Shown here in pieces: positions 33,360 through 59,100 of a DNA stretch of 64,000 bases. The stretch spans positions 46,580,854 to 46,644,853 of the forward strand of contig OX411551.1 in assembly GCA_948146395.1 (NCBI GenBank). The letters run 5' to 3'. A program made the position numbers and the translations under genes. The DNA comes from Fragum whitleyi (Eukaryota; Mollusca; Bivalvia; Cardiida; Cardiidae). The notes beneath the pieces were generated by a model that saw only the letters and a program-made list of their open reading frames with translations, searched no databases and had not been told where the DNA came from. Position 1 is the first letter of the stretch, and each line of letters begins with the position of its first letter.

Positions 33360-33631
33360 TTTGTTTGAATGGAGTTTTTCGTCGCTTTTAACATTTTTCA
33401 GTTATATCGCGGCGGCTGGAGCACCTAACAATGGATTCCTGGTGTTTCTCTCACCAGTACAACCATCACATTCTTTCCTAGCCTCCAGCTGCTATCTCAA
33501 ATTTGTCTACGATTATCAACCCATTGGTGAGAGACAAATAGTGTGAGAGAATGAGTGCCGCCGCCGGGGACCGAACTCGGGACCTCTAGATTGACAGCCC
33601 GACGCGCTACCACTTGCGCTATGACGGTGGC
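33360..33631 (-). mobile_element. tRNA-derived SINE with perfect 13-bp target duplication
   Basis: TCCTTGAAATCTG flanks both sides (33347-33359, 33632-33644). On the minus strand the head starts GAGCCACCGTCATAGCGCAA and the B box is GAGTTCGGTCCC; the tail is AACTCCATTCAAACAA. It inserted into a family-A MITE. The intact duplication marks it as one of the younger insertions here. Confidence 0.9.
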
Positions 33632-35036: not shown

Positions 35037-35169
35037 ATGGCGGCGGATATTTTAATCTACATCTCTTCGTTTGAAGGGACAGTTCTTGAGAATTGGATGA
35101 AATCCTTTAGTTTACGGACATGTAAACTTGAAACATTTTATAACAAAGGGGGGTTAACAGAAGAATCGT
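35037..35169 (+). CDS. Dehydrogenase alternative first exon 1A
   Basis: 133 nt open from [23 protein letters not shown], then 24 more codons and one extra base before T|GTAAGT. The hydrophobic strand followed by an amphipathic helix matches the N-terminal beta-alpha unit of this enzyme family. Length and phase match the other first exons exactly. It is the most upstream and most divergent member, and is preceded by CTAACCAG, which could also serve as a splice acceptor. Confidence 0.65.
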
Positions 35170-38100
35170 GTAAGTGTTGATATTTTACATTTAATAACAT
35201 CTAGAAATTGACTCTCATTCTGAATTCAATTGTTCTAAAACGCCCACTCGGCGCTCCATTCTTTCATTCAAAACACCCACTCAAACCATTCAAAAAACGC
35301 TCTAAAATTACCAAATAGATTAGACCAACAACTTCAACCCAGTCCGCATGGGTTCGACACCGGCTCACGGCGGATATTTTTCAGCTATGCTCCGGTTGAG
35401 GACAGTTCGTAAATAACATGGGGGCTCGTCTGAGATTGGTCATTGAGCCACTTATGATGTCGGCATTGTACCGACTTGGTTAGTTCAGGAAGCACATTTC
35501 TGCCTAGATAGGCTTATCGTCACCAATGTATTGTTATGGGAGACACTATCATCTCTGTCTAATCTCTGCATAGCGTCGTTGGTTAAAATACAATGTCTGA
35601 CACCTTCATCAGGGAAGATCTTCTTTGGCTCAGTGGTTAGCGCATTGTACTTGTTAACCAAAAAAATTAATATTGTTATCCGCGTGGGTTTGACACCGGC
35701 TCGCGGCGAATATTTTTCAGCATTGCTTCGGTTGAGGTACAGTTCTTACGTAACGTGGGGGCTTGTTCGGGATTGACCGTTGAGCCATATATGTCTGCAT
35801 TGTGTCGGCTTTCTTTCTAAGTATCGTCATCAATATATGATGACTCTTAAGGGGGAGAGTGTTATGGGAGATCACTCTCACCACTGTCCTGCATAGCTTC
35901 GTTGGTTTAAATACAATTTCTGACACCTGCGTCAAGGAAAATCTTCTTTGGCTCAGTGGCTAGCGCATTGGACTTCTAAATGAAAATTTGAATGTAACTT
36001 GTCCGCATGGTTTCGAGGCCGGCTCGCGCGGATATTTTTTTATCTATGCTTCGGTTGAGGACAGTTCGTACGTAACAACGAGTTTCCTGATTTTATTGAG
36101 TTTTATAAGCGTATGATTGGTTCGCGTAGAAATTAAAAGCTATTCATAGAACTTGTATGTTCATTTTGATAAAGGGATGTAATAAAGATATATTCATCTT
36201 GAACAAAATTAGCGTAGTTGGATTACCTCCCGAAAATTTCATTCAAAACTCACTCTCGCTCAATCAATTTAATTCCAAAAACATTTCAAAATCAGAAACC
36301 CTGCCAATTAAACGATGTCGTTAACTATAAGTTACTCATATTATGTTTTGTCATGATCAAGATCTTAAATCATTTTGCCGTTGGCGTTGTTCTGTTGATT
36401 TGTATATATCCGAGTTCCAAGGGGGCTTGTCCGGGGTATTACATGTAATCTTACATTATGTTCATGTATGCTCAAAATTAAATGCTTATATAAAAAAACT
36501 ATCGCCTAGCTCTGAGCTCAAAGTCAACCATTTGAAAGTGTTAATTGATTTGTTACAATTTTTCTTCGTTTTAAAAAGACGTACCATTTAAACTTGCAGA
36601 GCTTTTTCAATTGCATGCCTTCTCTATTACCCCAATTACATGTCATTCAAAACTTCCTCATAATTTTCGTGTTTTTTTCTGTTTTTTTTTTATTTTTTTA
36701 TTTTTTGTTTGTCTGTTTATTTTTATACCCAGATCATTCAGGAGTGGTTAATATTGTTAATTGATAAATGTTTTTTAATTTCTCGGATCGTCAGTTGGTT
36801 AGACACTCTCATAACCAAGTATATAGTAGGAACATCTACTCAACAACTGAAAATGCATCGACACGCCTTCTCTACGCCAGATAATGACTGTACATCCCTA
36901 CATGTAATTAACTTATAGTAGCAATGTTACCTCATATTGACGAAAAAAGTCACCTGTCAGATTGTTCATTGATCGAAAAAAAGTTTATTTGTTACGATGG
37001 ATTTATACGTAATCAGCTGTCTCACAGGAATTGAAGAGGTTTTGACAAAGATGCTTCCAGATATAAATATGATTTATCATAGATTGACATTCGAAGACGA
37101 CAAGTTTAATATAGATAAATGTAAGTGGCGTTAATTGTACCCTTTATAGCTACAGTTAAGATAATCGTGAAATTGACAAAATGAATGATTTTGGAATAAT
37201 TTTGAAATGAAATTGAATGAGAATGTGCAGCGAGCTTTGAGTGAAATTCAAGGGGGGTTGTCCAATATTGCTAATCTTGTTCAAGGCGATAAACTCCCTT
37301 TAATAGAAGTTAACATTTTTTTAATTAATGTGTCTTTATGGACCCAAAAGACGCTTTAAAATCCATATGAGCAAGCAAAGTCGCAGAATAATGTTATTAA
37401 TTTGAACTATATGACGATCGTCTTGGTCGATTTCGAAATGTTTTCTACAGATTGTGGAGCATTTTTGATCGATTTCAGTGAGTGTTTTTTAATAAATGAA
37501 TTGAGCGCTTTGTGAGCGATTTGGAAACTTTTGATGGGAATTTGTGTCAATTTCACGATTGTTTTAATCGTAAGAATAACGTTAAATTAACATTCATCCC
37601 GATCAAAAACAATGAAAATTACCCACTATATAATCACTGTACTCAAACTTGTCATCCAGTCATTCTAATTGCTAAAATTCAGTCTAAGTCATCGTTCAAA
37701 ACGCTACACACTTTTTTTTTCAAACCGACCAACTGATTTCAATGGATGTCACTTTAAATATTCATTTGATGAAAGGGAATTTTTATTTTGTCAAATAATA
37801 GCTTGATCATTTCTATTTTGCAAGATCGAAATTAGTATCTAATTGTAAACACGTTCATACTTTGTACATGTGTAGTGCCTCTTATGGTCCGTGGTTTGAT
37901 AAATTAAGTTAAACAAATTCTTGACCTCTGCAGTCGGATGGACTTCATCATGAATTGGTCCACTGATCTGGCGGGAGCCAATGAAGTTTTGAGTTGCGTC
38001 GGATTATTTAATATTTGTGAATCAATGTTATATTTTGCACTCAACACGTACAAAGTAACTTAATCCAAATGCTGTCATTTTATCGAAACCCTACAAGGAG

Positions 38101-41100
38101 ATTCAAATAACACCCGTATCATATGACAAACGTTTAATATATAACCCTATTTTGTGTAAGTAAACTTTTGTAATGGATGTTTATGTGTTAAGTTTCTTAC
38201 AAAACATTGACAAGGAACTTAAATCTCTTTTACCAAATACTGTACAATTGACTTATCAAGAAGTGTTTTGGAAAGGACAGGTCTTTGATCTCTCAAAATG
38301 TAAGTGTTCATTTTGCACTATTTTCCCATCATCAAATGACATGGATGTATATGGCGATGGGCGCCTGGTGGCCCCATTCGGAACACTACTCGGCCAATCT
38401 CACGATCAACCTCGGATGTACACACTCGGGAACCCTCGCCGATTCTACGGAATAGACCTCGGGAATAATAGTGGCGCAGCCATGAAAGCTCGTCATATCG
38501 CACGTTGGTTTTATATGACGTCACAATCATTACTAATGATGACGATGCGAAAAATAAATTCAACATAAGGTTAGAATTTGGCATATTATAATTTCAAAAC
38601 AAAACACAGTGTTTTACTGCGTTTTGCTTTCAAATATAACGTACCAAGATGATCTCCACAGACGATCGGAAAACATAAAAGGAATAAACAATTCCTCAAG
38701 CGTATTAACCAAAGTACCACCTGAAGCCGAATTACCGAAAAATTGACCAAAAATTACTTCAATTACGTCCGAGGTACTTTCCAGTTTACGGAAAAGTCCG
38801 AGCGGGTTTGATTGATGGCCAGTATACATACTTTTTTTTGTTTTTTTTCATTGGATGTATATAGAGAATAACATGTAAGTGTCTTAAAATACCAACGTTA
38901 TCGAGATTGGGAGAATTTATCATGACGAGACTTTGCCGAGTCATGATGATTTCTGGCTGTCGAGACCAGATAACATTGATATTTTAAGATACTTACAGGT
39001 TTTTCTATTTATCATGCAACCTTTATCGTGCTTTATTATGATAAACCATTAAAAAGTCAAAGAAAATCAGGTGAAAGCCTATGCAAATTGTTTCTGAAAA
39101 TAGACTGTTTTCTATCATGCTATATTATCAGACGGGTGATTTCGAGTCCTTATGGGCTTCAATGCATGATATTTCTTTATAAGACTTATTCCTGGTTTCG
39201 GGCCTATCTTAACAAATGTAACATATTTTTTTTCTAAAAAAAACAAGCATATTAGAACAGAGCGCTTGTATGTACATACATATATCTTAAGGGAGAAGCG
39301 TACCAATGAATCACGGTCGTGACATAGAATTTATATCAATAAAATATCCATCCAACCTTTTCAAAGAAGGAGTAAACGAAAGGTAGTGGGAAAAAGAAAG
39401 TTAAACCGACTCAAATCAAAATCGCAACGGGAACCAATCAGTTGTAAAAGACAAGCTCGAGAAGAAAAGAGTTTAATCACCATTTTTTCTCCTTTTTGTT
39501 GTTAATTTTTCCGTTTTCGCTGAATCTATTCGTGCAAAACGGGAAGACACTTTCGTCAAAGGCCTCGTGGGTGAATTCGGTTTGAGAAAACGGATCATTT
39601 ACATTGTGATTAATCTGATATAGCCTATGTAAAAGCTACGCTCCTCGTTTGTGTTCAATAAAAAATAATAAACGAAATAAATGGAAGATCGTCCGACTAT
39701 TTTTGCTGGTTCTGCATTATTTGATATAGCTGAATGTTTGGAGAAAATATTACCAGAACATCGCATAAGTTCTTTAAGAGTTTCAAGAGATTACAGAGAA
39801 GGAAAACGCATTTGTAAGTATTTATATAATAGTTACTAAGCGTTTTGTATGAAATAAGATATCTAACGAGGTTGGGGGAAATTGATAATTCGTCGAGGCT
39901 CTGCCGAAATAATTATCAATTCCCACAACCGAATAAATATTTTTTCATACAATTCACTGGGTACGTAGTAATATATTTATCATATAACCTCTATTTGCAT
40001 TGTTTCGTCGATGTTCCTAACAGAAATGCAAGTTTCTTAATATAACATTATGTCATTGCTCTTAAAATATCTATGTGATATTATAAAATATATCATATGG
40101 GATGTTATCACACGGATGTTTGTAAAGTTATATAAAAACTAATCTCCTCGTTTGCGTAAAAAGAATAATGAACAAAACAAATGAAAGATCGTCCGACTAA
40201 TTTTGCTTGATCTTCATTATTTGATGTAACGGGATATCTTGAGAAAATATTATCAGATTATCAATAAGCTCCTTAAGAGTTTCAAAAGATCGCAGAGAAG
40301 TAAAATCATATGAAAGTATAAATCTTTTCATATTAGAGTAAACAAAATCGTGAAATTGACATTTATCTCGATCAAAACCATTCCATATCACTTGCTCAGC
40401 GTTCCATTCTTTCATTCCAAACACTCACTCAACCATTCTAAATAGCTCCAAACACACTGAAAAAAAAAATAGAAAAAGGTCATTCAAAAGAAATAAAGCT
40501 ACTAAAAATAAAGATTTCACTGACATAATTCAAATTGTAGGTGACCGGTAGGTACTTGAAGAAATGGCTATTCATAGAACTTGTTTGCACATTTTATTAC
40601 CTTCAAGGAAGGTAATAAATATCGCTAATTTTGTTGATGTTGAACAAAATTTTCGAAATTGGGTTACCTCTAATTAAATTCACTCAAAAATCGAACATTG
40701 TTTGTTGCATGAAATGTCGAGAACATCCTTAGAAGGGTCAAGTGTGAGGTGTGTCAATTCATTAGGGACGTAGCATAAAATTGGTTTCGTGAAATATCTT
40801 CCGAACCCCTGATGAAACCGAAAAACTTCTGAATCGTTTAAAATGGAAATTGTTCAGGGGAAATAATCAAATAATAAACTTTTATTGTTTGCGCCATTTG
40901 TTAATCCCCATCACTTACTACTTATTTCATGAATTATTATCTGTATTTCAACCACGGCTGGTGATTGATAAGTAAGTTTCGCCCCAGACCTATTGGGGTC
41001 AATTGAGGTATAAACAAAGCTACTTGTACACCGTAATTGAGTGTTTTGATATAGGCTACTTTCATCTTATACTTACCCCTTTAATGAGAAACACCTTAAT

Positions 41101-44100
41101 GGAGGGGTTTCCGACTACTTTTGCAGGATCTGCATTTTTTAACGTAGCTGAATACTTGGAGAAATTATCACCAGGTTATCAAATAAACACTTTACAAATT
41201 ACAAGAGATTCTAAGTACGGAGAATATACTTGTAAGTATAATCATTTTAGATGTTTCTTCGTTTTTTTACCGCAAATATGCTAAATTGTCGAGACAAAAA
41301 AAGGTATTTGTTGTTAGAGTGTAGGACTTAGTTGTACAAATTGCTTAATTTCTTCAGATTATACATTGTATTTTACATTTTATTCGTATGACATAATAAG
41401 ATCCTGGTAACCTAAAACTACGAAATATCTTAACCAATAAAATATTACTACATTTCGTGACGTGATAGACCGTATTACATGTACATTATTACTACATGTG
41501 CTTAATGTTTTTAACTATGTTTTTTATAAGAAGATTACTACTTTATCCACGTTCAAAAATCACTTAAAAAAAAGAACGAAAAACCCAAAGAATTTCCGTT
41601 TCAAAAAATTTGTATGCATTTATACGTACATGAAAAAGCAACACGATACGTAAGTTTACGTCACTGCATAACTCGGCAGAAACATTTGACGGCAAGGTAC
41701 AGAACTACACCCGTGACAATAACACTGTTTTTGACGCACACCATACGCCTGCAAGAAAAGAATAGTTCAATTTGTAAATGGCTAGGGATTCCGTGTCAAA
41801 CTGCAATTACAAAAAAAAAACAACACATACATGTACCTGTCACCAAGGAAAAAAATGTAAGGAACATCGTCAAATGGATACCCATCCGGCCAAAACCCTT
41901 CTGAATCGATTGTATAGTGTCCGATTTAAAGTAATATGTAAAAAAATAAATAAAAGAAAAAAACAACATTAAACTCGACAATCTTTCACAACGCTCAACA
42001 ACTTTATTCAAATTGAATAAATGCGCATGTACGTTACATTTCCAGCAATTTGAAATGTTCCTGAGGTGCAAACATTGGGCATTGTTGGCAGCCTAAATCT
42101 GTAAATATAAAGTAACCTGATGGTCTACAGCTACTTTAAGCCCTTGTGACATGCTCTTTCAGATATCTTAGTTAAAATATGATCAGGCTAATAACATGGG
42201 TGCTATTGTCCAAAATGATAAGATATAAAAAAAAATCTTCTCGGAAACGCCTGGTTAGAATTCATCCAAACTTCACTGGAATGATGACCAGGAAATGTTT
42301 TTTTTTTTCAGATGTGTTAGTTTATTTCTGAAAGCGTTGATGCCATGAGCTCTACAGGCTGTTGTGCCACCCAAACATGGTCCCGTATTATATAATGTAT
42401 TTATTTATTTAAAAAAATCTTGTTCTCTGAAACTACCAATCAGAATTCAACCAAACTGCAGAGGAAAGATCAATGAGATATGATCTTTCAGATTTCCTCG
42501 TTTAATTCTGATCGGGCTGGTAACATGGGATGGGGTTGGATGTCGCGTCACCATAAAAGGTCCCAAATATGAACAAAAACTTCTCTGAAGCTACCGATTA
42601 GAAATCATCCAAACATCACAGGAATGATGCCTAGGACATGCTGTTCAGATTTATTTGTTAATGTCTGATTCTGGTGATGAAGTGGGCTCTACAGGCTGTT
42701 GAGTCACCTAAAGATTGTTCCATAAGGTGAAATATATATAAACAATCTTCTTCTCTGAAGCTTTTAATCAGAATAAAACCAAAAAACCACGGGAATTAAA
42801 CTTGGGAAAGGCACTTTCAGATTTGTTTAAATCTGATCTGGCTAATTACATAGGCTTTTCGGACTGTGAAGTCACTGAAAAAAGGTCACATAGGATGAAA
42901 TATAAAAATCGTCTTCTCTAAATCTACTGGACTGGGTTCAACTGAACTGCAGAAGAATGATCCTTATGATATGCTCTATCAACTGTCTTGTATATTAGGT
43001 GATATGATGTTGCATCATGGAAAAGAGGGCCTTTGTAATGAAACTTTTATTGTTATCACAACATGTACATTTATGGACAGATTGTTTCATATAAAAATTT
43101 GCTAATCATATGACTATTGTAGCTACCCTTCCCTCGTTGGCTTCTTGTATTTAATTGGATTTGATTTTAATTGTGAATAAAAAACCGTCTGGTTGGTCCG
43201 GGAAGACAAATTTATTTATATAAAATTACTCATTTTTTATTCGTCGTAAAGGGAGATAATAGATTACCGCTTCTTTGGTTCATTTCAACTCAATAATAAA
43301 GAATATTCCACTGAATGATCCCAGTCATCTGAACTTGTGCATATTGTCAGGATTCGGTGATATTCACCTGCGTCACAGAAAAAAGAGAGCCTCGGTATTA
43401 AATTTCTTGTTAAAGCAATGCCTCATAGACTATAAATGGATTCCGATGAAAATTTCGCATATTGCTCGTTATCAAAAAGATTTTTTGGCGACCCCCCCTC
43501 CCCCCCGTTATTTGAAAAGTATACGTATACGTTCTTATAAAAGACTTTTATTTCTTCTTTCGGTCAGAGGTTTTTAAACCCAGACAAAGCGTTAATATCA
43601 CACTTTTTTCGGAAAATTTGAATATAGTTGTTTAGTTTTATTGGTAATATTAAATCACTGTTGATTGTTTAAGAGAGTTTTGGAGTGAGTACATGGGGCG
43701 GTAAATGAATGATTTATAATGATCTTGATTGGAATGAGTGTTAATTTCAAGATGACAAAAACTGTAGCTTGAAACGATGATTTGCACCATATTTCACCTA
43801 AGATAACAACTGACCAGTGCACTTATCCTTTTCCCGTGTTTTGAAGACTTGTCCATATTGAAAGAAGTTACAGATTAAAATAAAAAAAATATAAAAAAAA
43901 CACACACATCTTCAGTGTGAACTTTTATGGGAAAACAAGGAGCTGCTTTTTACAAGTTATATCTTGTTTATCATTAATATTTTTTGCAAAAAGGTTGATG
44001 GAATGTTGTCACATATTCTACACTTTCCTAACTATGAAAAATCGAATGTTGATATTGTAAACTGAAGAAGGGTAAAACTAACCATCCACAATATATACTA

Positions 44101-47100
44101 CGCATAATTTGATAAGGAACACTTTAAATAAGACTGTTTTGAATTCTAATACATGGATTTGAAAGTAAATTCCTTTTGACTACTAAAAATGTTGCAATTG
44201 CCAAAGAGTTTGTAAAGAAATTTTGAAATCTGGACAAAGGCTCAAACTTTTATGGAGCAATTTATAAAACTTTCAAAAGAAAAGAATCGAGAAAATTGAT
44301 TTAATATTGCTGCAAAACTCTTTGCGCTTGCCACATCTCTGTGCAGCTTTCTGATAGCCGGTTACAACTCCGCTTAGGTACATGCTTTCTGATTGGTCGA
44401 AAGCTGCGAATACAATGGCCGTTGCAGACATTTATTCTTCTTGGTAGTAAAAATAAAATAGAACAAACGAGTTGTAATTGTTGGCGATGTGGAATGGAAT
44501 TAGGTGGTAAGTGACAGGATAAAATGCTTTCTATTGACTGTAATCAGTGATTTAAGTAGTGCACCGTGCAATGTGTAAAGAGGAGTTGAGCGTTCTCGAC
44601 AGACTAGAATTTCTGCCAAAATCTGGACTGTTCGGGTCATTTTCTATATTATATAAAATGAAAAAAAAGTGTAATCAATTTTTTGATGTAAACTTTTGTA
44701 ATATTACACTATCTTCCAATGTGTTGGATACCTGTGGGCCTAGTCAAATAGAATTTTGCATGAAATTTAGGGGCACAAAAAGTACACGTACCTATACGAA
44801 TCGATTTACTACAAATTGGACTGTCTACCAAAGTCAACATTTTTTTTATTATTTATCTTATAATTATACAATTACCCGCGTGATAACATCCCGTATGGAT
44901 ATTTTTTATATTACACAGAGTTATTTTTAGAACAAAGATATAATGCGGTTATTATTAGAAACTAGCATTTCAGTTAGAAACATCGAAACAAATAGAGGTT
45001 AAAAGATAGATATAATGCGTACTTAGTGTATTGTATGTAAAAAAAATATCTAACCCGGTTGTGAGTATTGATAATTGTCTCGGCAGAGCCTCGAAAGTGA
45101 TCAATTCTCCCAACCGTGTTATATATTTTTTCTCATACAGATTACTAAGTACGTATTATATATTTAAACATGACTTGAAGATGCAATAGACATTAATGGC
45201 TGGTCAACCGGTCATGCCAACCACGGATCCGTATTAGCAGTAGGGAACACTGGATTTGTCTATTCAAATCTCATTTTGAACGACTGGAAATGATCATTCG
45301 AAGTCTGAAATGCTTATTTGTACACAAATCCCCTAAACCACAAGTAACCATACAGGAAAATAAAAAGTCCTTGATATTTCCCATTCCTGGTAATCACGTT
45401 TTATTGCCCCTATCATTTTAAAATTGCAGTTTCATAGTTTGAGTTTTACATTAATTACAGTAAAAATCAACATATTTTCAGAATCCGAACAAATATTCTG
45501 ATACAGTTAAGAACATCGTTAAATTGACCCTTATTTCGATCAAAACCATTCATAATTGCCCACTCAGCGCTACATTCATTCATGCATTCGAAACACTCAA
45601 TCAAATCACTCAAAAACGCTCCAAATTCACTAAATAGATAAGACCAACAAATACATTTAAAAGAAAATTGCTAGCAAAATCCACGATTTCTCTGCCTTTA
45701 TTGAATTTTGTTATAGTCGTGTTGTTCGCGAAGACATAAAAACCTATTTATAGAACTTGTATACATGTATTATTAAAGGGAAGTAATAGATATGGCTAAT
45801 TGTGTTCATCTTGAACAAAATTAGCGACATTGGATTACCTCCCTTTAATTTCACTCAAAACTAATTCCTCTCGCTCAATCTATTTCATTTCAAAATCATG
45901 AAAATACCATTCAGCCTGTGAATAAGACGATGTTCTAACTTACTTCCATTCTCTCTTAGAGAATAAATACAAACTTAAGAGTGGTCCTTTTCAAATTTTG
46001 AATACTATACATTTGAAGACAAATCATGGACCAAAAGTTATTCGTGTGTTCATTTTTACCCGGATTTGAACGACTAAAATTCATATTGTGTAATTCAAAT
46101 ATTAAGTACTTGAAAGTTTCGCAGGAACTTACATCGGATAACACATATAAATGTAAGTGGCAAACTGCTAAGTCTTCGTACAATTGTTACGTTATATTCA
46201 AGCACCATAACCACATAAAGAAATAATCAGTTAAATGTACTAGTTGATAAATATGTATTTTTGTAAGGGTTTTGTATTTCCTTTGATTTCTATAGGCAAA
46301 AGACATTTATTTGCATAACATTTTTTTTTTTTTTTGAATTTTGATCGATAAGTAAATTCTTGTTCAATGTACAGTATATCTTCTTAATTTTTACGAAAGC
46401 ACAGCGTGTGTATGGTATGCTGCAGGTGCTAGATTATATGAATAAAAATAAACAGTTAGATACATCGTGAAATTGACATTTATCTAAATTAAAACTATTC
46501 TCAATCGCTCACTCAGCTCTCCATTCATTCAAAACACTCACTCAAACAATTCAAAACCGCTTGAAATTACTAGAAATATATACGATTAACAATTCCTTCA
46601 AATAAATTGATATTTCAGTTTCAGAACGACGAAAGCCAAGATCCAAATCAGAGGTACAGATAAGAGTGGTTTATATTTCAAAATGAAACCCTACGTTGTA
46701 TGTACTCATTGAGATTGTCTCGACGAGACAATCTAAATGAGTACTCACAAAGTAGGGTTGAGCAGGGATCAGTGAAATATTCATATATGAATAAAAAAAA
46801 ACCCTCTACATGTAGGTCTGATAATAATTGAGCCTGTTCGTGTAACTTTCAACAATTTCAAATGTGCTCCAAGTTCAGACTCTGAGCAGCTGTACAGTCT
46901 GACCAGGGTCAGTGTGCGCTTTGTTGAAAGGTTATGCCCAAAATAGTTTCCAGAAAGTCAGGCAAACTTCTAATTATACTACGTGGCAGTCAAGGATGGG
47001 TAATGTTGGCCCTTCATGCACATGTCAAATTGTTGGAAATGTCACGCACAGGCTCATTTATTTTTTTCAGTTGAATGTCCAGCATTGGAAGATGAGGAAT

Positions 47101-50100
47101 TACGAAACAAAATTGAAGTTTTATTTGCTGATCTGCCCATCATTACAAAATACAGGAATCGCCTACCGAACCTAAAATGGGTCCACACTGCTTGGAATGG
47201 TCTGTATTTTCTGCCCTTCGTTCAGGATGACAAAACTATAAAAACTGTTTGCAAATTATACCCCGCTTAGAATTTAAGTGCACTTGCAAAGCGGGATATA
47301 ATTTTCAAACAGTTTGCACATTTTTTGAAATCCTGAACGCGGGGCTGCTTTCTGTAGATTCTTTGATATATTAAGTACTATCAAGTAATTGTTGACATTA
47401 ACTAATAAGATACACGAAACACTTTTAAAGCAATATAATAACAACGTATTTAACATATGGGCAAATCTCAACCCAACTTCACTATATCTTGATTGTTTGT
47501 TTCGTGATAATTTGTAAATTACGTTTAAAATATATTTTATAAAAACACATATTTCGTTTTTATAATATATTTTTGACCGCCACGTAAAAAGGGCTATCTT
47601 AGCACTTCGAGAAAAAATATTTGAAAAGGGATTGGTTCCAGTATATGCCAATTATGGGTCGCATTTCAATACCTCTTTCACCAGAAGGTAGAAAGATGAT
47701 TTCAGAATCAGGTCATCCACAAGTGCGAAAAGTGCCGACATTTCTCAGCTTGCGCTCTCTGCGCAGTCCGGCTAGGTCGATACTTTACGAACAACCCAGA
47801 TGGTCTGTTTTTACATTATGCGACACATTACGTTTTTCTTTTACTTTCTCTTTTAGGAGTCGACAATTTGATGAATGTAATTCACAAAAACGAAGAGGTA
47901 CGTAATAATACTAATTCAGCTTCCTTTAATTTATTCGAATTGGGGTCATGGCCACTATTTAATAACTTTACAGTCATAACTCGGCAACTGCAGCACCTAA
48001 CAATGGATCTCTGGAATTTCTCGCACAAATGCTAGCGATATATGCTTTCCTAGCCTCCAGATGCTATCAAACTTGGGTTAACGATTGGTCATCCTTTAGT
48101 TGGAAACAATCGAACGAGGAGATGTTTTCCGCCGTCGGGGATGGAACCCAGGACATGTCGTGATTGAGGCTTGAAGCTAGCATTAGAAATAAAAGTTGAA
48201 AGCGATGTTGATTTTAATGAAAATGAATTATCATCTTTTTTCGAACAGGAAACATCATTAAGCAAAAAAATCCTAATCATTGGATTTTTTTTTCAAATAT
48301 GATCAAGCCATAACATTAAATCATTTTTTTGAAATAAAATAAATATTCTAATACGATAGTATGTCATGGTAAATTCAATGATTTAACTCCTACGACCAAA
48401 AGGAGATCAGTCATTATTTTACTTAAATTTACTTAAATTACAGCCACTGCCGACCTTCACCTTAACTAAGACTTTGGGCATCGTGAATGCCCCATACATG
48501 GCAGAATACGTCATCGGTTACGTCATTGCTACAGAAAGGGAGTTCTTTGAAATGAAGAGGCTACAGGAAGAAAAGGAATGGGGACAGTGAGTCTATTTTC
48601 CAATTTTGTATCACAGACAGACTATATAGGCACCACACGCTTAACACACAACTACAGTTAAAAACATCGTAGATTTGACACCCATTCCAATCAAAATCAA
48701 TCACTCAGCGTCCCATACATTCATTTCAAACACTCATTCATATCGATCAAAAACGCTCCAAAATCGTTAGAAAACATCTCAAAATAGTTATAGGCGATCA
48801 ACATTTAATTCAAATCTTTCAAATAATTCTACGTTTTCTTGGCTAGTGTAGATTTTAAAGTGTCTGATTTGTCCATGAAGACACACAGACAGAAAAAGTG
48901 CGTATAATTGATAAGAGGGGAGGGCAATGAATATCGTTATTTTTTTTCATCTTGAACAAAATTAGCGATATTGATTACGTCCTTCTAATTTCAACCCAAA
49001 CCCGCTCCACACACTCATTCAATACCATTCCAAAATCACTCCGAAATCATTCATCTGGCGAATTTCATAATGTTGTATACTGTATCGAGCTTTACTTCTA
49101 ATGCCAACAGCTTGTAGTGCCTTTTATCAGACTTAAGACGAGTTAAACATGGATAAATAGGGACAAGCGGATTCCCTGTTGTCACATTCTCAACGGACAC
49201 TTCTATCCTATCCTTTAACCTTCAGCACACATGCACTTGTCTTGTGTCATCATGTAAAGCAGCGTGCTTTCGAGACCGACTTCATTATAAATAAATTCAC
49301 TTTATAATAAAAACAAACAGCAACAACAACAAAAAAAAAACAACAACAAAAAAAAAAAAAACAAAAAAAACCAGACAATTAATATCGATTGGGTAATAAT
49401 TAAAGTTGTAGTGATGATTTACTCTATCAGTATATCGGTAATTACATTTGTTAATTAGGACCGTTATCTTAAGTTGTTTTATTTTATTAACACAAATTGA
49501 AAAAAAGTAAAGAGATGTAATAAAATATGGCTTAATTGGATCCAATTGAACGACAGAACATCTTACCTTTCCTTTCAGTAAAAGATACTCGTACTTTCTT
49601 TTCTCTGAATAGATTAGTGGTACCTACCGGATGAGTCAAATACTTCCATATTTTCGCTTGCCTGTAAAATCTTTGAATATTGGGACAATTTGAATAACGT
49701 TTTTGGACAGTTAGAGAGATTTAGGGCCATTTCGAACGAGTTTTTAAAATGTTGGGAATTCATGAATGGGGATCTTATGAAAGAATCGTCTGTACAATAT
49801 TATACATGTACCTTTGTAATATGTCTTTTCCACATTTCCTTTTCAGATTAAAGTTTGGATCAGTTCGGAAGCTGAACCGATTAACTATAGGATTTCTTGG
49901 GACAGGAGCTATTGCTGAATACAGTAAGTCTATTGAGAATAATCATTTGATAAAGTGTAAAATCAGGTAATCTTTGATTTATGGAACAACATACCTTTAA
50001 TTTCCATGAGTTACGGATCAACAGTGTCCATATAACTAAAAATGAAAGATTTACCGGTGTCACACAAAATGAATTAAACAAACCAACATCCACAACAAAG

Positions 50101-53100
50101 GTCGAAACATAGTCCATATAAAATAGCATGATTACATTTACACAAGCAGAGTTTATTTACAATTTTTATTCACTGGAAATCATCTTCAAATGTTAATTCA
50201 CTATAAAAATCTTAATGATTCGATAAATAACGTTTCTAGAATTCTTCTAGTCGTTAGGAAATATGAGTTCCTCGAAAAAATGTAACTCGCAATACTGGGT
50301 GAATTTCAAAGTAAAAGGAATTATTTGATCGGTTGCGATAGATCTTTGATCCCTGTAAGGTATCTAAGCAAACATGAAAGATCTAAGAGTAATGATCCAG
50401 TAGAAAACATTGGTCTCTTTATTCTAGATGCTGTAAAACCCTGTAGCATGGGTTAAAGTTGATAAACTACTCAAAGTTTGCCAAGCACCAAACCTTTTCG
50501 CTGTCCAACATGGGCTGGTAAAAAATCAAAGCACTGAAAGTAATGATGGTGAACGAACATGATGGCATTCTAGAACGATATATTGAATTCAATTAGAAAA
50601 GAGAAATTATGTATGTAAAAATAGTAAAAAAAGGGGGATATTGTCTCGACAAAATTTACGTTATTCGGAATTTCACACGTTAATTCAAAGAAAGGGAAAG
50701 AGAGGAAAAGTCCTGTAAGAATAATATTTGTAAGAATATGAGTTGTTACTCTGTGAAAATTTCTTTTACGCACTTGCAATAGGTACATTTATTAATTAAA
50801 CATAAATGGGAAAAAAATAATCCTATCTAAAACTGTGCTTAACCTGTATTAAATGGTGTTTGTTTTTACAAAAGTAATTGTTATCATGTTTAAGTTTATT
50901 TCAATTAGATAAATTGTTGTATTTGTTTTAACTTTTTTTTATCTATCTTTGTTTCTTCTCAGAGGATGAAAAGGTCTTTGAGTACCAACCAAACAAACAC
51001 TTATAAATATCAGTCAGTCCTGAACTGTACTCATTGTTTAAAGATATGGTTTGTTAACTTATTAATAGTATTTTAAACCATAACCTAAGAGAATCCTTTT
51101 TATCATATCTGAAGCTAAAACCACTTCCGTCGTTGACACTTATGTCGTTATTCAATTTTACAATACAGGCTATCTGCAGGATGAGAAATAATTAGGTATA
51201 GATTAAAGGAGGTCTAGTGCCCTATTAGAATAATTCATAGATAATTTCTGTTTAGGGTTTAGAAATTAAAGTATTACTTTTTTTTTATTAAATAATTGCT
51301 TTATAGTAAATTGCATACTAAAAGTCTAAATAATTATTATTTTGTAACCTAATTTCAACGTCAAAAGCGAATAGGAATCTTATTCAAGAAATTTATGTTT
51401 TAAAAGGAGGTAACAATTGCATGACTATGTTTATTTAATAGTATAAGTATAATATAATGTTTTTTCCTCCCGACTTTCTTCCCAATAAGAATTGAGAATC
51501 CTTACAATTGTTGGTTTATTTTTTGCACTAGAACCTATTATTTACCTTCAAGAGTTTTAATGCCAGTAAAATCACTCACTACCAATATCTTATTACAGTA
51601 TTGCGGTTGATATTAGACTTTTCTGCTCGGAGCTAGTTTTTGCTTAAACTGTAGTTAACCAGTTCTAAACGTATTTGGAGAAGGATGGAGCCAGTCTTTA
51701 TTCATCGATTAAGATTTTTATGATTTCTGTAAAAAACACAATGACTTTTCCAGAATAATTTAACAACTAAACCCGCCTGTCGAATTGTAAACAAAAGCAT
51801 GACGGATCTGGCCCCCCTTGACCACGGCAATATGTATTCGTCAATTGGAGTGGTATCTAGGGTTGAATATTTAGCTATCATTTAATTAATTTTCAAATAA
51901 AATTTTGAATTGATAAGGTTTTACAGATTGCAAAAATGCAAAGTAGAATGGCCCCAATGACATATCTTCCGTGCCTGCCACATTTGGTATTCGCCAATAT
52001 TCGCTTCTCAGACAGACGAATACGATACGTTTTCGTTTGGAATAAGATATTCGGTTCACCGAATATTTGAATGTACCCTTACAGCCCTACTTCAGCCACC
52101 ACAATTTTAGAGAAAAAATGTTAATAGCGGCGTTCATATCTATTCAAATAAAAGGTACATGAAAGGTTGTACATGTAAAACTCGTGTCGAATAGTTCTTA
52201 AAACCCGTCTTAAGACTGACTGCTGCATGTTGAAAAGTTATGTAAAACCGCGTTACCGTTTATAATGACACAAGGTATCTTGATGTGTCATTCGTCTCAA
52301 CTCGGCCGATTTTGTAACCTACATTAAAATCGGATACGTCGGAGATCGCCCGAGTATTGCCGAATGTAAGTTCAAGAGGACAGGACCTAAATAAACACAT
52401 AATTCCGGCTAATTACTACAAGTTGCACTTGCGAAGGCTTTGGTCAAAAACATAGTATCTGTCTCTACGGTGTTTAGACACATACTTTGTTTTTGCTATA
52501 AACTCTCGACAAGCTTACGCCGATCAAAAATTCCCTTGATAAACATTGCAAGATCATTTTGTGTTTTGCAAGGCGAATATTCATTATCTTCACTTGATGA
52601 AGAATACTAGTATCACGCCATTAACATAATAAACAGTGATTTTGCGGAGAAAAATCTTGAAAGATACTAATTGAATCTTAAGAAGCACTGCTTTATTTCG
52701 AATGTATTAACATCCTACATGATTTTCCTGAGACAGTATAACACTGGTGAACGTCTTCGTTCACCAAAAAGGAAAAAAAAAACACAAAAAACATTCGTGC
52801 TCGTGTTTAAAATTGAACAATAAGGTATTGACAAGATATCTGATGTATACATTATCAAATTTGATACGCAATTTTTTCGCGAGACTCGTGCAAATTGAGG
52901 AAAACCGATTTCTTACCTGTCCTTTCCCATTTTCTACGTGTAGGCCTACGAATTCGTGAAGATGCTGAGTGTCTGTTTTTCAGTACTTTTAAGTCATTAC
53001 TCACGTCTAATCCAAATATCAGACGACATTTAACTGTCGAACAGTTGTGGCCTGTTGTATGTATGGTGGAGCAAGGGGCTTTCCACCGTGATGTTGGCAT

Positions 53101-56100
53101 GGTACTGGGGGTACACCATACTGTTGTAACCAGAGCTATGGAACGATACCAGCAGTATGGTACAACTGTGAGGAAACATGATTGAGGTAGGAGTAGAGCT
53201 ACCTCCGTCACAGAAGACCGATTTTTGTAAATTCAAGCCCGAGGGAACAGGTTTGCTACGGCAACGCAGCTATGTTCCGACCTTCTAAACGCCTCGGAAG
53301 TGCGAGTTTCGACCCAAACCATACGAACACGGCTGCATGAGCATAACCTGAGGTCAAGAAGACTAGGTATTCGTATTCCGCTGTCCCGAGTTCATTTTCG
53401 GGGTCGGTTTACATGGGCATTGGACCACGTTTGCTGGCGCATAAGACGCTGGCGCACCGTGTTATTCACGGATGAGTCCAGGTATTGCCTGGACTACACT
53501 GATAGGCGGGCTAGGGTGTTGAAAAGGCTGGGGAAAAGGTTTCATGCAGCAAACATTGCTGAGCACGATCGTTATGGGGGTGGGTCCATTATGGTTTGGG
53601 ATGGCATTAGCTCGGATGGGCGGACCGATCTTGTTATTTTAGAAAGAGGTGCTCTGACAGCTCGTAGGTACATTGATGAAATCCTCAATACCCACGTAAG
53701 ATTTTACGCTGGTGCTATTGTGGATGGATTCATTTTAATGGATGATAATTCCCGTCCACACACGGCCCGTACAGTCCAAGATTATCGCCAAGAAGAGGGC
53801 ATTCCGCGTCGGGACTTGCCGGCTAGCTCACCGGATTTAAATCCGATAGAGCATACGTGGAATGAGCTACAAGTCCGAGTTTCGGCTCGCCAGGTCCAGC
53901 CAAGGACACTCTAGGAGCTCGGCCAGATCCTAAGAGAAGAATGGTCTGTAAATCCCTTAAGAGTTATCCAAAACGTAATCAGGAGTATGCAATTTTCAAG
54001 AAAACAGACCAACTTCTAGGGTCTCCCTATTTGGTCTACATTTAAAGTCTTCTTATCATTATAAAGCTTTATTTTCTTCTTAAAATTTGATAAACTGATA
54101 CAATCGACCATTTTCCAACATTCTTATAATCAAATTAACTTTTTCCTTAAATTTTAGTATAAAATGTTTGATGCTTGATGAGTAGTATTTAAGAGCAATA
54201 AATGCATTAATAACTTTCAAATTGGTTAATATGTGACAAAATCTACTCCAGCAACTTTAAGAAAACGTATACTTAAAACAGCTGCTTCTTTCTCTTTGCT
54301 TCAGATTCGTTTTTGAATGCTAAAATATCAATGATATGATTTTTATTAAACGTCCAAGATCAAATGTATTTTTGTGATGGGGTATTGAGATAGACTTAAT
54401 TTAGGCTTTAGTGAGTCTTCTTGTTGTCGATTTCAGTCTTTATTGTTTGAGCGACCACTTCGATTTAGCAATCCATGCTATAAAGCAGTCGTCATGAAAC
54501 AATCTTTCAACTTAAGCGAAATCCATGAAAAAGTGGACATATCGAATCTGATGTTATTTGAACCAATTAGACGATTCTAATAGTTTCTAACATCATAGGA
54601 TTCAGTAGAACTTTATAAACATGTACTGTTTGTTATCAAAATGACCTGTCTTTATTATGAAATATTGTATTAAGCGACCGTTTCCATGAGCGACCACTAT
54701 TTGCGGTCCCGAAAGTCGTCGCTTATTACAAGTTTTACTAAAATTTCATTGGGTTTATTGGGTTTACAGAGCGAAATGGATATTGTTGTCGAACAACCAG
54801 AGATTTAAAGGCGCGTGTGTTCTACATACTGGGCTTCTCTCTAGCAAACTATTTGCAGCGACCGCTTTCCATATAAACGGAGTTGAGATTTGAATTTTCT
54901 ACATTTAACAACATCGTGAAATTGACAAGATGAACGATTGAAGAGTTACTTTGGAATGAAATTGAATGAGTGTGTGGAGCGAGTTTTGAGTGAATTTAAC
55001 GGAATAATCCATACCGCTAATTTTGTTCAAAATTAGCGGTATGTATTACCTCCTTTTAATTATTTAGACGTAATTTTCAGTTTATGTGTCTTTGTGGACA
55101 AAACAGACACTTTAAAAAACCTTTTCATGTAATAAAATTGTGAAATAATTCTATCAATTTGAATTAAATATTGGTCGGTTTGAACGCTTTCGTGATGGTT
55201 TCTAATGATTTCGGAGTTTTATTGATAACAATGATAATAATAGCTTAATTTATAGAAGGTAAACATGTTAAGACATAAACATATATGCACAAATCTTATT
55301 TTCAACACGGCCTTATGAAAAGAAAAAGTAGAACAATACAAATTAAACATAGCATGGATCGTTTTGAGTGAGTGTTTGGAACGAACGAATGCAGCGCTGA
55401 TTGAGGGATATTGAATGGTTTTGATCGCTTTGAGTGTAAATTTCTCGATGTTTTTAAGTGAACTCGTTATCAAACACCAGCACCGCAAAAAGCTTACACA
55501 TTTGGTACGTTTGGAGTCTGTTACATTTTGTTTACTTTCAGCTGCTAAGCTTTGTAAAGCTTTTGGAATGAAGGTTTGGGGACTATCACGACGGCTTAAA
55601 CAAGCAACAGAGAAAACCGCTAGTTTTGACGTCTATAAGTAAGCAAGACATTGAGATTTATATACTTTTTCTCTTTTCTACAGTTAAGAACATCTTGCAA
55701 TTGACTAAAGGAAAAAAATTAGAATGGTTTCGGAATGTTTTTATAAGAGTGGGAAGAGCGGATTTGAATCAATGTAATGAAGGCAACACAATTTAGCTAA
55801 TTGCGTTCACGATAAACGCCATATCCTTTTATCAAGCTTTAGTCTTTAGTATAAATTCGCATTGATATTTCACTAGATCATAAAAAAACTTACTTGTTAA
55901 AACTTCACTATAGCGAAACAGTTATCAAATGTTAGTTGGCCATAGTATATTGAATGTCTTGTTTTGTTTTCAAGAACAACAGAAGAGTTACCCGAGTTCC
56001 TTGAAAACTGTGACTATATTTGTAATGTGTTACCGAGTACACCGTCAACAAGGAATTTATTGTCTGGTGGAAAATTAGAACACTGTAAACATAGGGTAGG

Positions 56101-59100
56101 TACTTGCTATATTTGTAATGTGTAACCGAGTACACCGTCAACAAGAAATTTATTGTCTGGTGGAAAATTAGAACACTGTAAACATAGGGTAGGCACTTGC
56201 TATATTTGTAATGTGTAGCCGAGTACACCGTCAACAAGAAATTTATTGTCTGGTGGAATATTAGAACACTGTAAACATAGGGTAGGTACTTGCTATATTT
56301 GTAATGTGTTACCGAGTTCACCGTCAACTTAAACTTTATTGTCTGGTGGAATATTAGAACACTGTAAACATAGCGTATGTACTTGCTATATTTGTGATGT
56401 GTTACCGAGTACCCTTTCAACAAAGAATTTGTTGTGGAAGAATGTTAGAACACTGTAAACATAGGGTAGGTACTTGTTATATTTGTAATGTGTTACCGAT
56501 TACTAATTCAACTGAGAATTTTTTTCTGTTGGGATATTTAAACACTTTAAACATAGGGTAGGTGCTATTTATACTTCCTTATCATTGCCAAACACACCAC
56601 CAATGAAGAATGTTTGCCCGTCCAAAGACTAGATCATTGTTAACTTTGGATATTTGCATTATCATTTGTTGTTAATTTGCAAATACACCATCGACAAAGA
56701 ATACTTGGATACGTTAACAATGCTCCCGGGAAAAGTGGATGGTGATTTTTATGATAAGCTATACACATCGTCATCACAGAATTTCTAGTGTTTAAATGGA
56801 AATTTGAGCGAGTGATCAAAGGGCAGTTTTTTCGTTCATAGATAAATCGAACTTTTCTGTAAAGATAGAGGGATTCTTTGTTTAGCCTACTTGCTTAAAT
56901 TTGTATACCTACATGTACAGAAGAATGCTGGGGTGCTGTTAATAAAAGTGTTGATGAATATGTATGGATATCTGTTATTCATCATCAAATACGCATCAGA
57001 AATGGGATAACCCTCCGTCGAGAAAGGCAATCTGGTTTTAAATGCAGATTTCTTGAATTGATAGTACTTTTTTTCTTTTTTTTTCAGAAAACTGTTTTTA
57101 TCAATATAGGACGAGGAGATGTTGTTGACGATAATTGTATAGTTACAGCAATACAGTAAGTTACTTGTTACTCAATTTCAAAGTATGACTATTTTTGTAG
57201 TCATAGCGCTATTGTTTCGTGCGTCGGTAAACAACAAAAATGCTCTCGCAATCTTTGAATAATATAATAACACATAATTACCGTTGTTTATTGATTTTTA
57301 TATTGAAATTTTCATTCAGCCTTAGAACTCAGAATCGTGGTTAAATACTATCAATAGATAAGAGTTTTAAGAGCGGCGCATATACGCCGAGAGGGGCTTG
57401 TCGGTAACCTTGGCTTGTCAGTGAAATGAGTTTGAATGATAGCTTAAAAATTGCAAAAAGACGGACAGACGACTGGGGCCATAACATAGAATTTTTTACC
57501 ATTTGAGTGTATATTTAAAATTGTTTTATGCACAACTAAACACCATACAGAGTCTCTTTGGTAATATTTCAGTTCACTTCAATTCAAAGTGTAAGAGAAG
57601 TTGCTCACAAAAGAAATAAAGTAAATTTAAATCAAATATTCAAGGGCAGATAATACAAGACCCAAGCTTTTTGAATTTCTTAAGTCTTATGCTCAACTAA
57701 ATATCAGAGATATATTGTGGCAAGATTCAATTCAATCCAAAAGAAGTTGGAGGAGATGTGCATGCACACACATATGCCAAAAGAAGACCCAGTAATTTTA
57801 AGCTATATTGTTAAGTAAAGGGCAGATAATTTAGGAACAACTTAACATATCAAAAAGAGTTTAGTTCTAAGCACAACTAGACATCCTACAGAGTAATTAT
57901 GGCAAGTGTCGTTCATTCCCATTCAAAATGTAGTAGAAATGAGCTAACAAGAAATTTTGTGTTTCGTTCAATTCAAGAGAAGATAATTCAAAATGATTCA
58001 ACCATGACTGGAGCGGTTTGAATTTCAAAGTCTAATTCACAACTAAACATCATAGGGAGTAATTGTGCCAAGTTCCGGCTCATTCCCATTGATAGTTTAG
58101 GAGGAGTTGCGCACACACACAAAAAAAAACCCAGTGATTTTTGTTCACTTCAAGAACAATAATTCAAGGTAGCTCAAGAATGACTCGAGCGATTTGAATT
58201 TCAAAGGTCGTATCCACATCCAGACATCATAGGGAGTAATTGTGCCAAGTTTCAGCTCATTCCCTTGGATAGTTAAGAAGGACTTGCACACAAAAAATTG
58301 CTAACGGACAGACAGACGGACAGACGTATAGATAGACGGGCAGACAAACAGACAGTCGAGCGGACGACCGGGGCCATAACATTATACGACCCTTCGGGCG
58401 TTAAAAACGGTAAAAATTTGTTGTTATTTTATCATGACTAATAAATATTTACAATAACTACGGGTTAGTTCCCTTTGATAATAATCACCCTCCTTTTTCC
58501 CAACGTAACAGACGCAATGATTTCCGATTGATTCTTTGAAAAGTCAAATTCTTAAATTTTCCTACTTCGTTATCATCATTACCAACATACGTATCTTGCA
58601 CGTTTTTCCAACCTAAGACCTAAAAAAGACAATGAATTTCTCTTTTTTCCGCATAATATAGTTTAGTGCGTAGATAGATAATGTATGACAAGTCCAAAGT
58701 GCTCACGGTTAGGGCATGCAAAAGCCATACTAATAATAGGTTAAACTATAGTCAACTACTTAACAAGATAAGCCTACATTTATAATAAAAACGATGAACG
58801 AGGGATTTTTTCTGTCGATCACGGATTTCCGCTTCGTTCTCATAATTTCGTCGTCGAGCATCCAAGAACAAACCTCAATTCTATGTTATCCTGGCTGATT
58901 ATAATAATATGAACAAATATTTAGGTACAAAGCCGCTATCTCTCAAACTCCTCCTCAGCCGAGTTAAGTCCATAATTTAATTTGTGACCCATCACGCGAA
59001 AAGGGACCATCTTGGTAGCGCGTAAAATGTCGATCCTGGTCAGACTGCGCGAATTGCGCAGACTGACTAGGGTCGAAACTTTTCGCACTTTGCTTATTTT

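What the first reader, a model, noticed from the sequence alone, without database searches (positions are those of the whole stretch)
35037..47199. Cassette of six interchangeable first coding exons feeding one dehydrogenase
Seen: six different ATG-initiated exons (35037, 36997, 38173, 39681, 41099, 46026), 124-133 nt long, all open, all ending in phase 1 at the same T|GTAAGT donor. Each would join shared exon 2 by forming the same TTT codon. Each encodes a hydrophobic strand plus helix matching the N-terminal unit of D-2-hydroxyacid dehydrogenases. Most lack an upstream splice acceptor at the ATG. Inference: separate promoters or 5' UTRs drive alternative N-termini on one enzyme body, possibly changing substrate, dimer contacts or localisation. 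I know of no described first-exon array of this size for this family.
Basis: partly seen in the sequence, partly recalled or inferred. Interest (0 to 1): 0.92.

Follow-up and report, generated by a model that had tools for sequence, protein, structure and literature searches.

The report
Six alternative starts for one enzyme
A clam-like genome carries six different, intact starting pieces in a row in front of one enzyme gene, each fitting the same enzyme body, so the animal can probably make six versions of one metabolic enzyme; no RNA data were available to confirm it.

Summary
Six ATG-led exons (124-133 nt), each open, each ending in phase 1 at T|GTAAGT, precede one intact nine-exon body (47071-61433) of a D-2-hydroxyacid dehydrogenase. 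A mechanical filter finds exactly these six in the 47 kb upstream; Markov samples gave a mean of 1.4, and 0.09 with T|GTAAGT. They and one decayed copy (about 40181-40311) are the only matches found in the 1.22-Gb genome. The body occurs once; two diverged paralogous loci show one detectable first exon each. Joining any two in series gives an early stop (15 of 15 pairs), so they are mutually exclusive. By a model of a clam homologue, the exon encodes beta1-alpha1-beta2 of the substrate domain. In relatives the N-terminal unit is also decoupled from the body: 4 of 5 clade pairs with body identity of 60% or more have N-terminal identity of 25% or less, against 4 of 337 other pairs. Best reading: a multiple-variable-first-exon cluster, working like vertebrate UGT1 but in a clam metabolic enzyme. 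Separate promoters and junction reads are untested; altered targeting is unlikely; altered catalysis is open. Exon A is the weakest member.

The parts
35037..35169 (+). variable first exon A (44 codons + T); possible acceptor CAG directly before the ATG
   Evidence: open, phase 1, T|GTAAGT; acceptor-like tract; weakest homology, not recovered in leave-one-out
36997..37120 (+). variable first exon B (41 codons + T)
   Evidence: recovered in leave-one-out, narrowly
38173..38299 (+). variable first exon C (42 codons + T)
   Evidence: recovered in leave-one-out and top hit of the homologue-only model
39681..39813 (+). variable first exon D (44 codons + T)
   Evidence: leave-one-out 19.1 bits; sister of E (48% amino-acid identity)
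40181..40311 (+). decayed copy of first exon D (pseudo-exon): stops, two 1-nt gaps against D, donor lost (GAAAGT)
   Evidence: alignment to D, 79% over 121 columns; 1 TGA and 1 TAA inside; profile hit. End placed by the alignment to D
41099..41231 (+). variable first exon E (44 codons + T); in-frame ATG also at 41084
   Evidence: leave-one-out 15.4 bits
46026..46152 (+). variable first exon F (42 codons + T)
   Evidence: recovered in leave-one-out, narrowly
47071..47199 (+). constant exon 2
   Evidence: acceptor TTTTTTTCAG, phase 1 in; genome search
47857..47897 (+). constant exon 3
   Evidence: tblastn in the window
48444..48586 (+). constant exon 4
49847..49923 (+). constant exon 5, contains GxGxxA of the NAD-binding fold
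55542..55638 (+). constant exon 6
55975..56095 (+). constant exon 7
57088..57155 (+). constant exon 8, contains the GRG arginine
60111..60240 (+). constant exon 9, contains the EPLP glutamate and the TPH histidine
61335..61433 (+). constant exon 10 with stop codon TGA

Best explanation
A multiple-variable-first-exon cluster. Each of six first exons starts its own transcript from its own promoter (inferred) and carries the start codon. Its donor is joined to the single exon-2 acceptor, because first exons B-F show no clear acceptor at their ATG and are passed over as intron (sequence shown, splicing inferred). Series joining would shift the frame and hit a stop, so the choice is one of six (shown by sequence). 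The product is one D-2-hydroxyacid dehydrogenase body (NAD domain, catalytic Arg/Glu/His and most of the substrate domain shared) with one of six diverged beta1-alpha1-beta2 units at its N-terminus. The array grew by tandem duplication of the exon with loss of some copies. Most likely effect: six separately controlled forms of the enzyme, with modest tuning of the substrate domain (inference, least sure).
For: Six intact exons with the same phase and donor, more than chance. GTAAGT donors are 6 of 6 in the array against 3 of 8 in the body. Intact body with stop, PF02826 over its cut-off, found once in the genome apart from two diverged paralogues. No further match to the array exons in the genome besides a decayed copy (that search did not pick up the first exons of the paralogues, so it sees close relatives only). 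Both paralogues have one detectable phase-1 first exon of the same kind. The decayed copy of D has stops, gaps and no donor at 79% identity, while the more diverged pair D/E (74%) has no indel, no stop and both donors; chance of no stop at that distance 0.11 by simulation. 15 of 15 series joins stop at codons 54-59. Exon 1 equals beta1-alpha1-beta2 in the model of P0002. In the same clade the N-terminal unit is decoupled from the body: 4 of 5 clade pairs against 4 of 337 others.
Against: No transcript of this species was seen: no listed hit exceeds 57% identity to the window protein, and searches added none that looks like it. No shared promoter motif (1 shared 8-mer against 2.2 at random) and a TATA-like element in only 3 of 6 within 300 nt, one of them at -35. 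Exon A is not recovered by leave-one-out, and a model of outside homologues finds only C. dN/dS for D/E is 0.61 on 44 codons: only weak constraint. Other pairs are saturated at silent sites or nearly so.
Confidence: 0.75

Rival explanations
1. Relic array: one or two first exons are used, and the rest are leftover tandem duplicates that have not yet decayed.
For: One copy is visibly decayed. dN/dS for D/E is near 0.6. Exon A has weak homology. Each paralogue shows only one detectable first exon.
Against: A, B, C, D/E and F are diverged to saturation or nearly so at silent sites, yet all keep start, frame and the identical T|GTAAGT donor; unused copies of that age should look like the pseudo-exon.
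Confidence: 0.15
2. Six promoters, one activity: the first exons serve only to drive the gene in different tissues or conditions, and the differing N-termini are functionally equal. As far as splicing goes this is a sub-case of the best explanation.
For: Catalytic residues and NAD fold lie in shared exons; the N-terminal unit differs greatly across the clade; dN/dS for D/E about 0.6.
Against: Nothing direct. Recoding a 41-44-residue unit in the substrate domain without any effect would be surprising.
Confidence: 0.4
3. Assembly artefact: exons from separate gene copies were collapsed into one locus.
For: None found.
Against: No N in the window; it lies inside a 64.6-Mb contig; no further close body copies with matching exons elsewhere; where the spacers resemble each other at length, apart from the D copy, it is through a repeat with over 10,000 candidate places genome-wide (one copy was tested).
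Confidence: 0.03

Closest known systems
Vertebrate UGT1 (UGT1A) cluster
   [quoted passage not shown] variable part at the N-terminus on the substrate side, constant part binding the cofactor or donor; relics and pseudo-exons; birth-and-death growth (PMC1885805: abstract and two sections read).
   [quoted passage not shown] here only about 43 residues (one beta-alpha-beta unit). UGT1 splicing is established; here it is inferred. That paper calls the UGT1, GCNT2 and UGT2A organisation vertebrate-specific.
Clustered protocadherins (Pcdh alpha, gamma)
   Same: Variable first exons joined to constant exons (PMC1885805).
   Different: Cell-surface proteins, not enzymes; far longer variable exons (recalled).
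Canonical metazoan 'glyoxylate/hydroxypyruvate reductase A-like' genes, including the two paralogues in this genome
   Same: Same dehydrogenase family; both paralogues have a first exon of the same kind and phase.
   Different: One detectable first exon in each paralogue; outside the clade the N-terminus mostly diverges together with the body.

Membership tests
Multiple-variable-first-exon cluster (UGT1/Pcdh kind) | tandem array of different first exons followed by one set of constant exons | tested here: met
Multiple-variable-first-exon cluster (UGT1/Pcdh kind) | every first exon fits the same acceptor and frame, and only one can be used | tested here: met
   phase 1 and T|GTAAGT 6 of 6; 15 of 15 series joins stop early; only A has a clear acceptor at its ATG, C and E have weak ones 10-12 nt up
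Multiple-variable-first-exon cluster (UGT1/Pcdh kind) | first exons homologous to each other, with relics | tested here: met
   B-F recovered in leave-one-out, A not; relic of D
Multiple-variable-first-exon cluster (UGT1/Pcdh kind) | own promoter for each first exon | not testable with these tools
   no expression or start-site data; motif look gave nothing
Multiple-variable-first-exon cluster (UGT1/Pcdh kind) | mRNAs joining each first exon to the constant exons | not testable with these tools
   no own-species protein seen among the listed hits
D-2-hydroxyacid dehydrogenase family | NAD-binding domain PF02826 | tested here: met
   150.8 bits against cut-off 25.1, isoform C
D-2-hydroxyacid dehydrogenase family | catalytic Arg, Glu, His | tested here: met
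   R252, E281, H300 of P0002 invariant in 43 aligned relatives; present in the window protein; their catalytic role is recalled
D-2-hydroxyacid dehydrogenase family | substrate (catalytic) domain PF00389 | tested here: inconclusive
   not detected by Pfam in isoform C, but the whole-fold match of homologue P0002 to 3hg7 has TM-score 0.82
Glyoxylate/hydroxypyruvate reductase GhrA or GhrB (equivalog) | NCBIfam equivalog score | tested here: not met
   102 bits against cut-off 403 (GhrA), 99 against 492 (GhrB); the 'reductase A-like' name is by similarity only

The most novel reading that the evidence does not exclude
Heterodont clams evolved a UGT1-like diversifying enzyme outside vertebrates: a clade-wide array of exchangeable first exons that swaps a beta-alpha-beta unit of the substrate domain of one dehydrogenase, giving a set of enzymes with different substrates from one gene.
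Probability: 0.35. Interest if true: 0.8.

Novelty: new variant of a known kind. Interest (0 to 1): 0.6.

Why it matters
If the junctions are real, this is a variable-first-exon cluster in an invertebrate metabolic enzyme, where the exchanged piece is a sub-domain unit of about 43 residues inside one fold, not a whole domain. It offers a compact natural experiment on how much of an enzyme's N-terminal unit can be exchanged, and on whether clams make several enzyme versions from one gene. The first test (junction reads in RNA data) is cheap.

Tried and rejected
Shared promoter motif in the 300 nt before each ATG: none above random. A block of about 340 nt shared upstream of A, E and F looked like a common promoter but is a dispersed element: the search with the F copy had 10,422 candidate places in the genome (40 scored, 70 matches listed), some showing an inverted end. 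Own-species transcripts in the protein collection: none seen; two searches listed only the best 120 of 233 and of 2,980. One search gave six proteins: five single-exon, genomic-looking fragments and a sea-anemone protein. One-to-one orthology of single window exons with relatives' N-termini: too weak; best outside links were C to P0013, D to P0010 and F to P0013. Targeting peptides: rejected by inference. Extra first exons at the paralogues: none above background. Members of the Mercenaria cluster P0002 ('isoform X4', 8 members) could not be opened, so whether those isoforms differ in the first exon is unknown. In some searches, 91 of 229 proteins were dropped by length, unknown residues or N-terminal alignment, among them clade member P0001, whose N-terminus is too short; P0128's N-terminus does not resemble the unit and may be mis-predicted. 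In one search I chose 19 canonical sequences by hand; one search was run to remove that choice. One search prints rounded percentages; recounted exactly, one clade pair (body 59.9%) falls below the 60% line and one N-terminus is 24.4%, so the count is 4 of 5 at 25% or less (3 of 5 at 24% or less), not the 5 of 6 that the rounded values suggest. The 60% and 25% lines were set after seeing the data.
Full report
WHAT IS THERE. The window is a stretch of contig C9 (64.6 Mb) of an unnamed 1.22-Gb genome. That it is a clam-like bivalve is inferred from the nearest proteins (Ruditapes, Mercenaria, Mactra). Six ATG-led exons lie on the plus strand at 35037, 36997, 38173, 39681, 41099 and 46026. All are open, 124-133 nt long, one base over a multiple of three, and end T|GTAAGT. 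Each would join exon 2 at 47071. The body then runs through exons 47071-47199, 47857-47897, 48444-48586, 49847-49923, 55542-55638, 55975-56095, 57088-57155, 60111-60240 and 61335-61433 with consistent phases and a TGA at the end. The product (isoform C tested) scores 150.8 bits to PF02826. It keeps the GxGxxA motif and the Arg, Glu and His that correspond to columns invariant in 43 aligned relatives. Their catalytic role is recalled knowledge of the family.

MORE THAN CHANCE. A blind filter (ATG, open frame, phase 1, GTRAG donor, 100-160 nt) returns six places in the 47 kb upstream of exon 2, and they are these six. 200 Markov samples of that stretch give a mean of 1.4 and a largest count of 6; with T|GTAAGT also required, a mean of 0.09 and a largest count of 2. 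The same filter gives 0 in 37 kb and 1 (a chance frame) in 39.6 kb upstream of exon 2 of two paralogues. It also misses the paralogues' own first exons, whose donors are weaker. GTAAGT donors are 6 of 6 in the array but 3 of 8 in the body. In leave-one-out profile searches, five of six exons are recovered above the best unrelated hit: D 19.1, E 15.4, C 14.2, B 7.8 and F 6.7 bits, against 4.8-6.0 for the best unrelated hit of each search. D and E each had the other in the model. Exon A is not recovered. A model from outside homologues alone finds only C clearly (5.7 bits).

UNIQUE PLACE. A search of the whole genome with the six exons gives seven matches at E up to 10: the six and a decayed copy. 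That search did not pick up the first exons of the paralogues, so it sees close relatives only. The body gives this locus, two paralogous loci (C9 near 15.0 Mb, C8 near 40.7 Mb, minus strand) and weak matches to more distant dehydrogenases. Reading of about 70 and 60 kb shows that both paralogues have matching exons along most of the body and one detectable first exon each, again phase 1 and of similar size (133 nt at C9, about 103 nt at C8). So the array is special to this locus as far as could be seen, and a collapsed assembly of several genes is unlikely.

BIRTH AND DEATH. A copy of exon D lies at about 40181-40311. It is 79% like D over 121 columns but holds stops and two 1-nt gaps against D, and its donor reads GAAAGT. 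D and E are further apart (74% over 130 columns; 48% amino-acid identity), yet show no indel in the exon and no stop, and keep both donors. Under neutral change to the same distance an open frame would survive with probability 0.11. dN/dS for D and E is 0.61 (dN 0.33, dS 0.55, 44 codons). That is weak constraint, and it cannot be told from diversification on so few codons. Ten of the 15 pairs are fully saturated at silent sites, and the rest apart from D/E have dS above 1.

WHY ONE AT A TIME. Each exon is one base over a multiple of three, so joining two in series puts exon 2 out of frame: 15 of 15 pairs reach a stop at codons 54-59. B to F show no clear acceptor at the ATG; C and E have weak ones 12 and 10 nt up, and A has a plausible one exactly at the ATG. 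The natural reading is that a transcript starts at one first exon and its donor takes the only good acceptor ahead, that of exon 2. This is how UGT1 and protocadherin clusters are described (PMC1885805: abstract, Background and one results section read). Separate promoters are inferred; a motif search found nothing shared.

WHAT THE EXCHANGED PIECE IS. The model of the Mercenaria homologue P0002 (mean pLDDT 93.8, 43 sequences; first 40 residues 77-88) has strand 4-9, helix 13-22 and strand 27-31 before the residue that aligns with the exon-2 boundary, about residue 41-42. So a first exon is one beta-alpha-beta unit of the substrate domain. The fold matches D-2-hydroxyacid dehydrogenases (3hg7, TM-score 0.82). 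The few residues before the first strand leave little room for a targeting peptide, so a change of localisation is unlikely. I could not test whether the unit reaches the substrate.

THE SAME SIGN IN RELATIVES. In proteins of the same clade the N-terminal unit does not follow the body. Mercenaria P0002 and P0003 share 74% of the body and 15% of the N-terminus. P0003 shares 44% of its N-terminus with P0005, with body at 68%. Of 5 clade pairs with body identity of 60% or more, 4 have N-terminal identity of 25% or less. Among 337 other pairs with body at 60% or more, 4 do; with body at 65% or more it is 2 of 3 clade pairs against 0 of 192 (an exact recount; 138 of 229 proteins kept; P0001 dropped for a short N-terminus). 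The pairs are few in the clade and not independent, the cut lines were set after seeing the data, and database gene models may be wrong at the start. But P0005 and P0127 come from contigs of 1132 and 1170 bases that hold the whole protein, which for a ten-exon gene means spliced RNA (inference). This fits exchange of first exons across heterodont clams, though the arrays of those species were not seen.

WHAT IS NOT SHOWN. No RNA of this species was available; no listed hit exceeds 57% identity to the window protein, and searches added none that looks like it. The names 'glyoxylate/hydroxypyruvate reductase A-like' rest on similarity; the GhrA and GhrB equivalog cut-offs are far from met. Substrates are unknown.

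LITERATURE. Ten searches of open-licence papers gave no report of a first-exon array in this enzyme family or of one like it in a mollusc, judged from titles and abstract starts. The Manila clam paper PMC9803972 counts alternative first exons among common splicing events but its main text holds no mention of glyoxylate or hydroxypyruvate (passages only). Most subscription papers are not in that library.

VERDICT. Observation confirmed; cluster of alternative first exons likely (0.75); a functional change of the enzyme possible but unproven.

Noticed in passing
56014-56563: A 93-nt tandem repeat (about 6 copies) in intron 7 whose unit holds the last part of exon 7 and its donor, so several near-copies of the exon end and splice site follow the real one.
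   Followed up: partly
45500-45860 and similar blocks upstream of A and E: A dispersed repeat of about 360 nt, some matches with an inverted end, with over 10,000 candidate places genome-wide.
   Followed up: partly
53300-53914: An open frame in intron 5 that looks like a Tc1/mariner-type transposase (recalled motif, no family search succeeded).
   Followed up: no
31568-32218 (minus): An open frame that looks like a fragment of a LINE-type reverse transcriptase (recalled motif).
   Followed up: no
3429-3502 (plus) and 33555-33628 (minus): Two predicted tRNA-Asp (GTC) genes in the window; they may be part of a tRNA-derived repeat (guess).
   Followed up: no
relatives P0128, P0001: Dreissena and Ruditapes models with the same kind of body have N-termini that do not show the usual first strand; either mis-predicted first exons or further variants.
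   Followed up: partly
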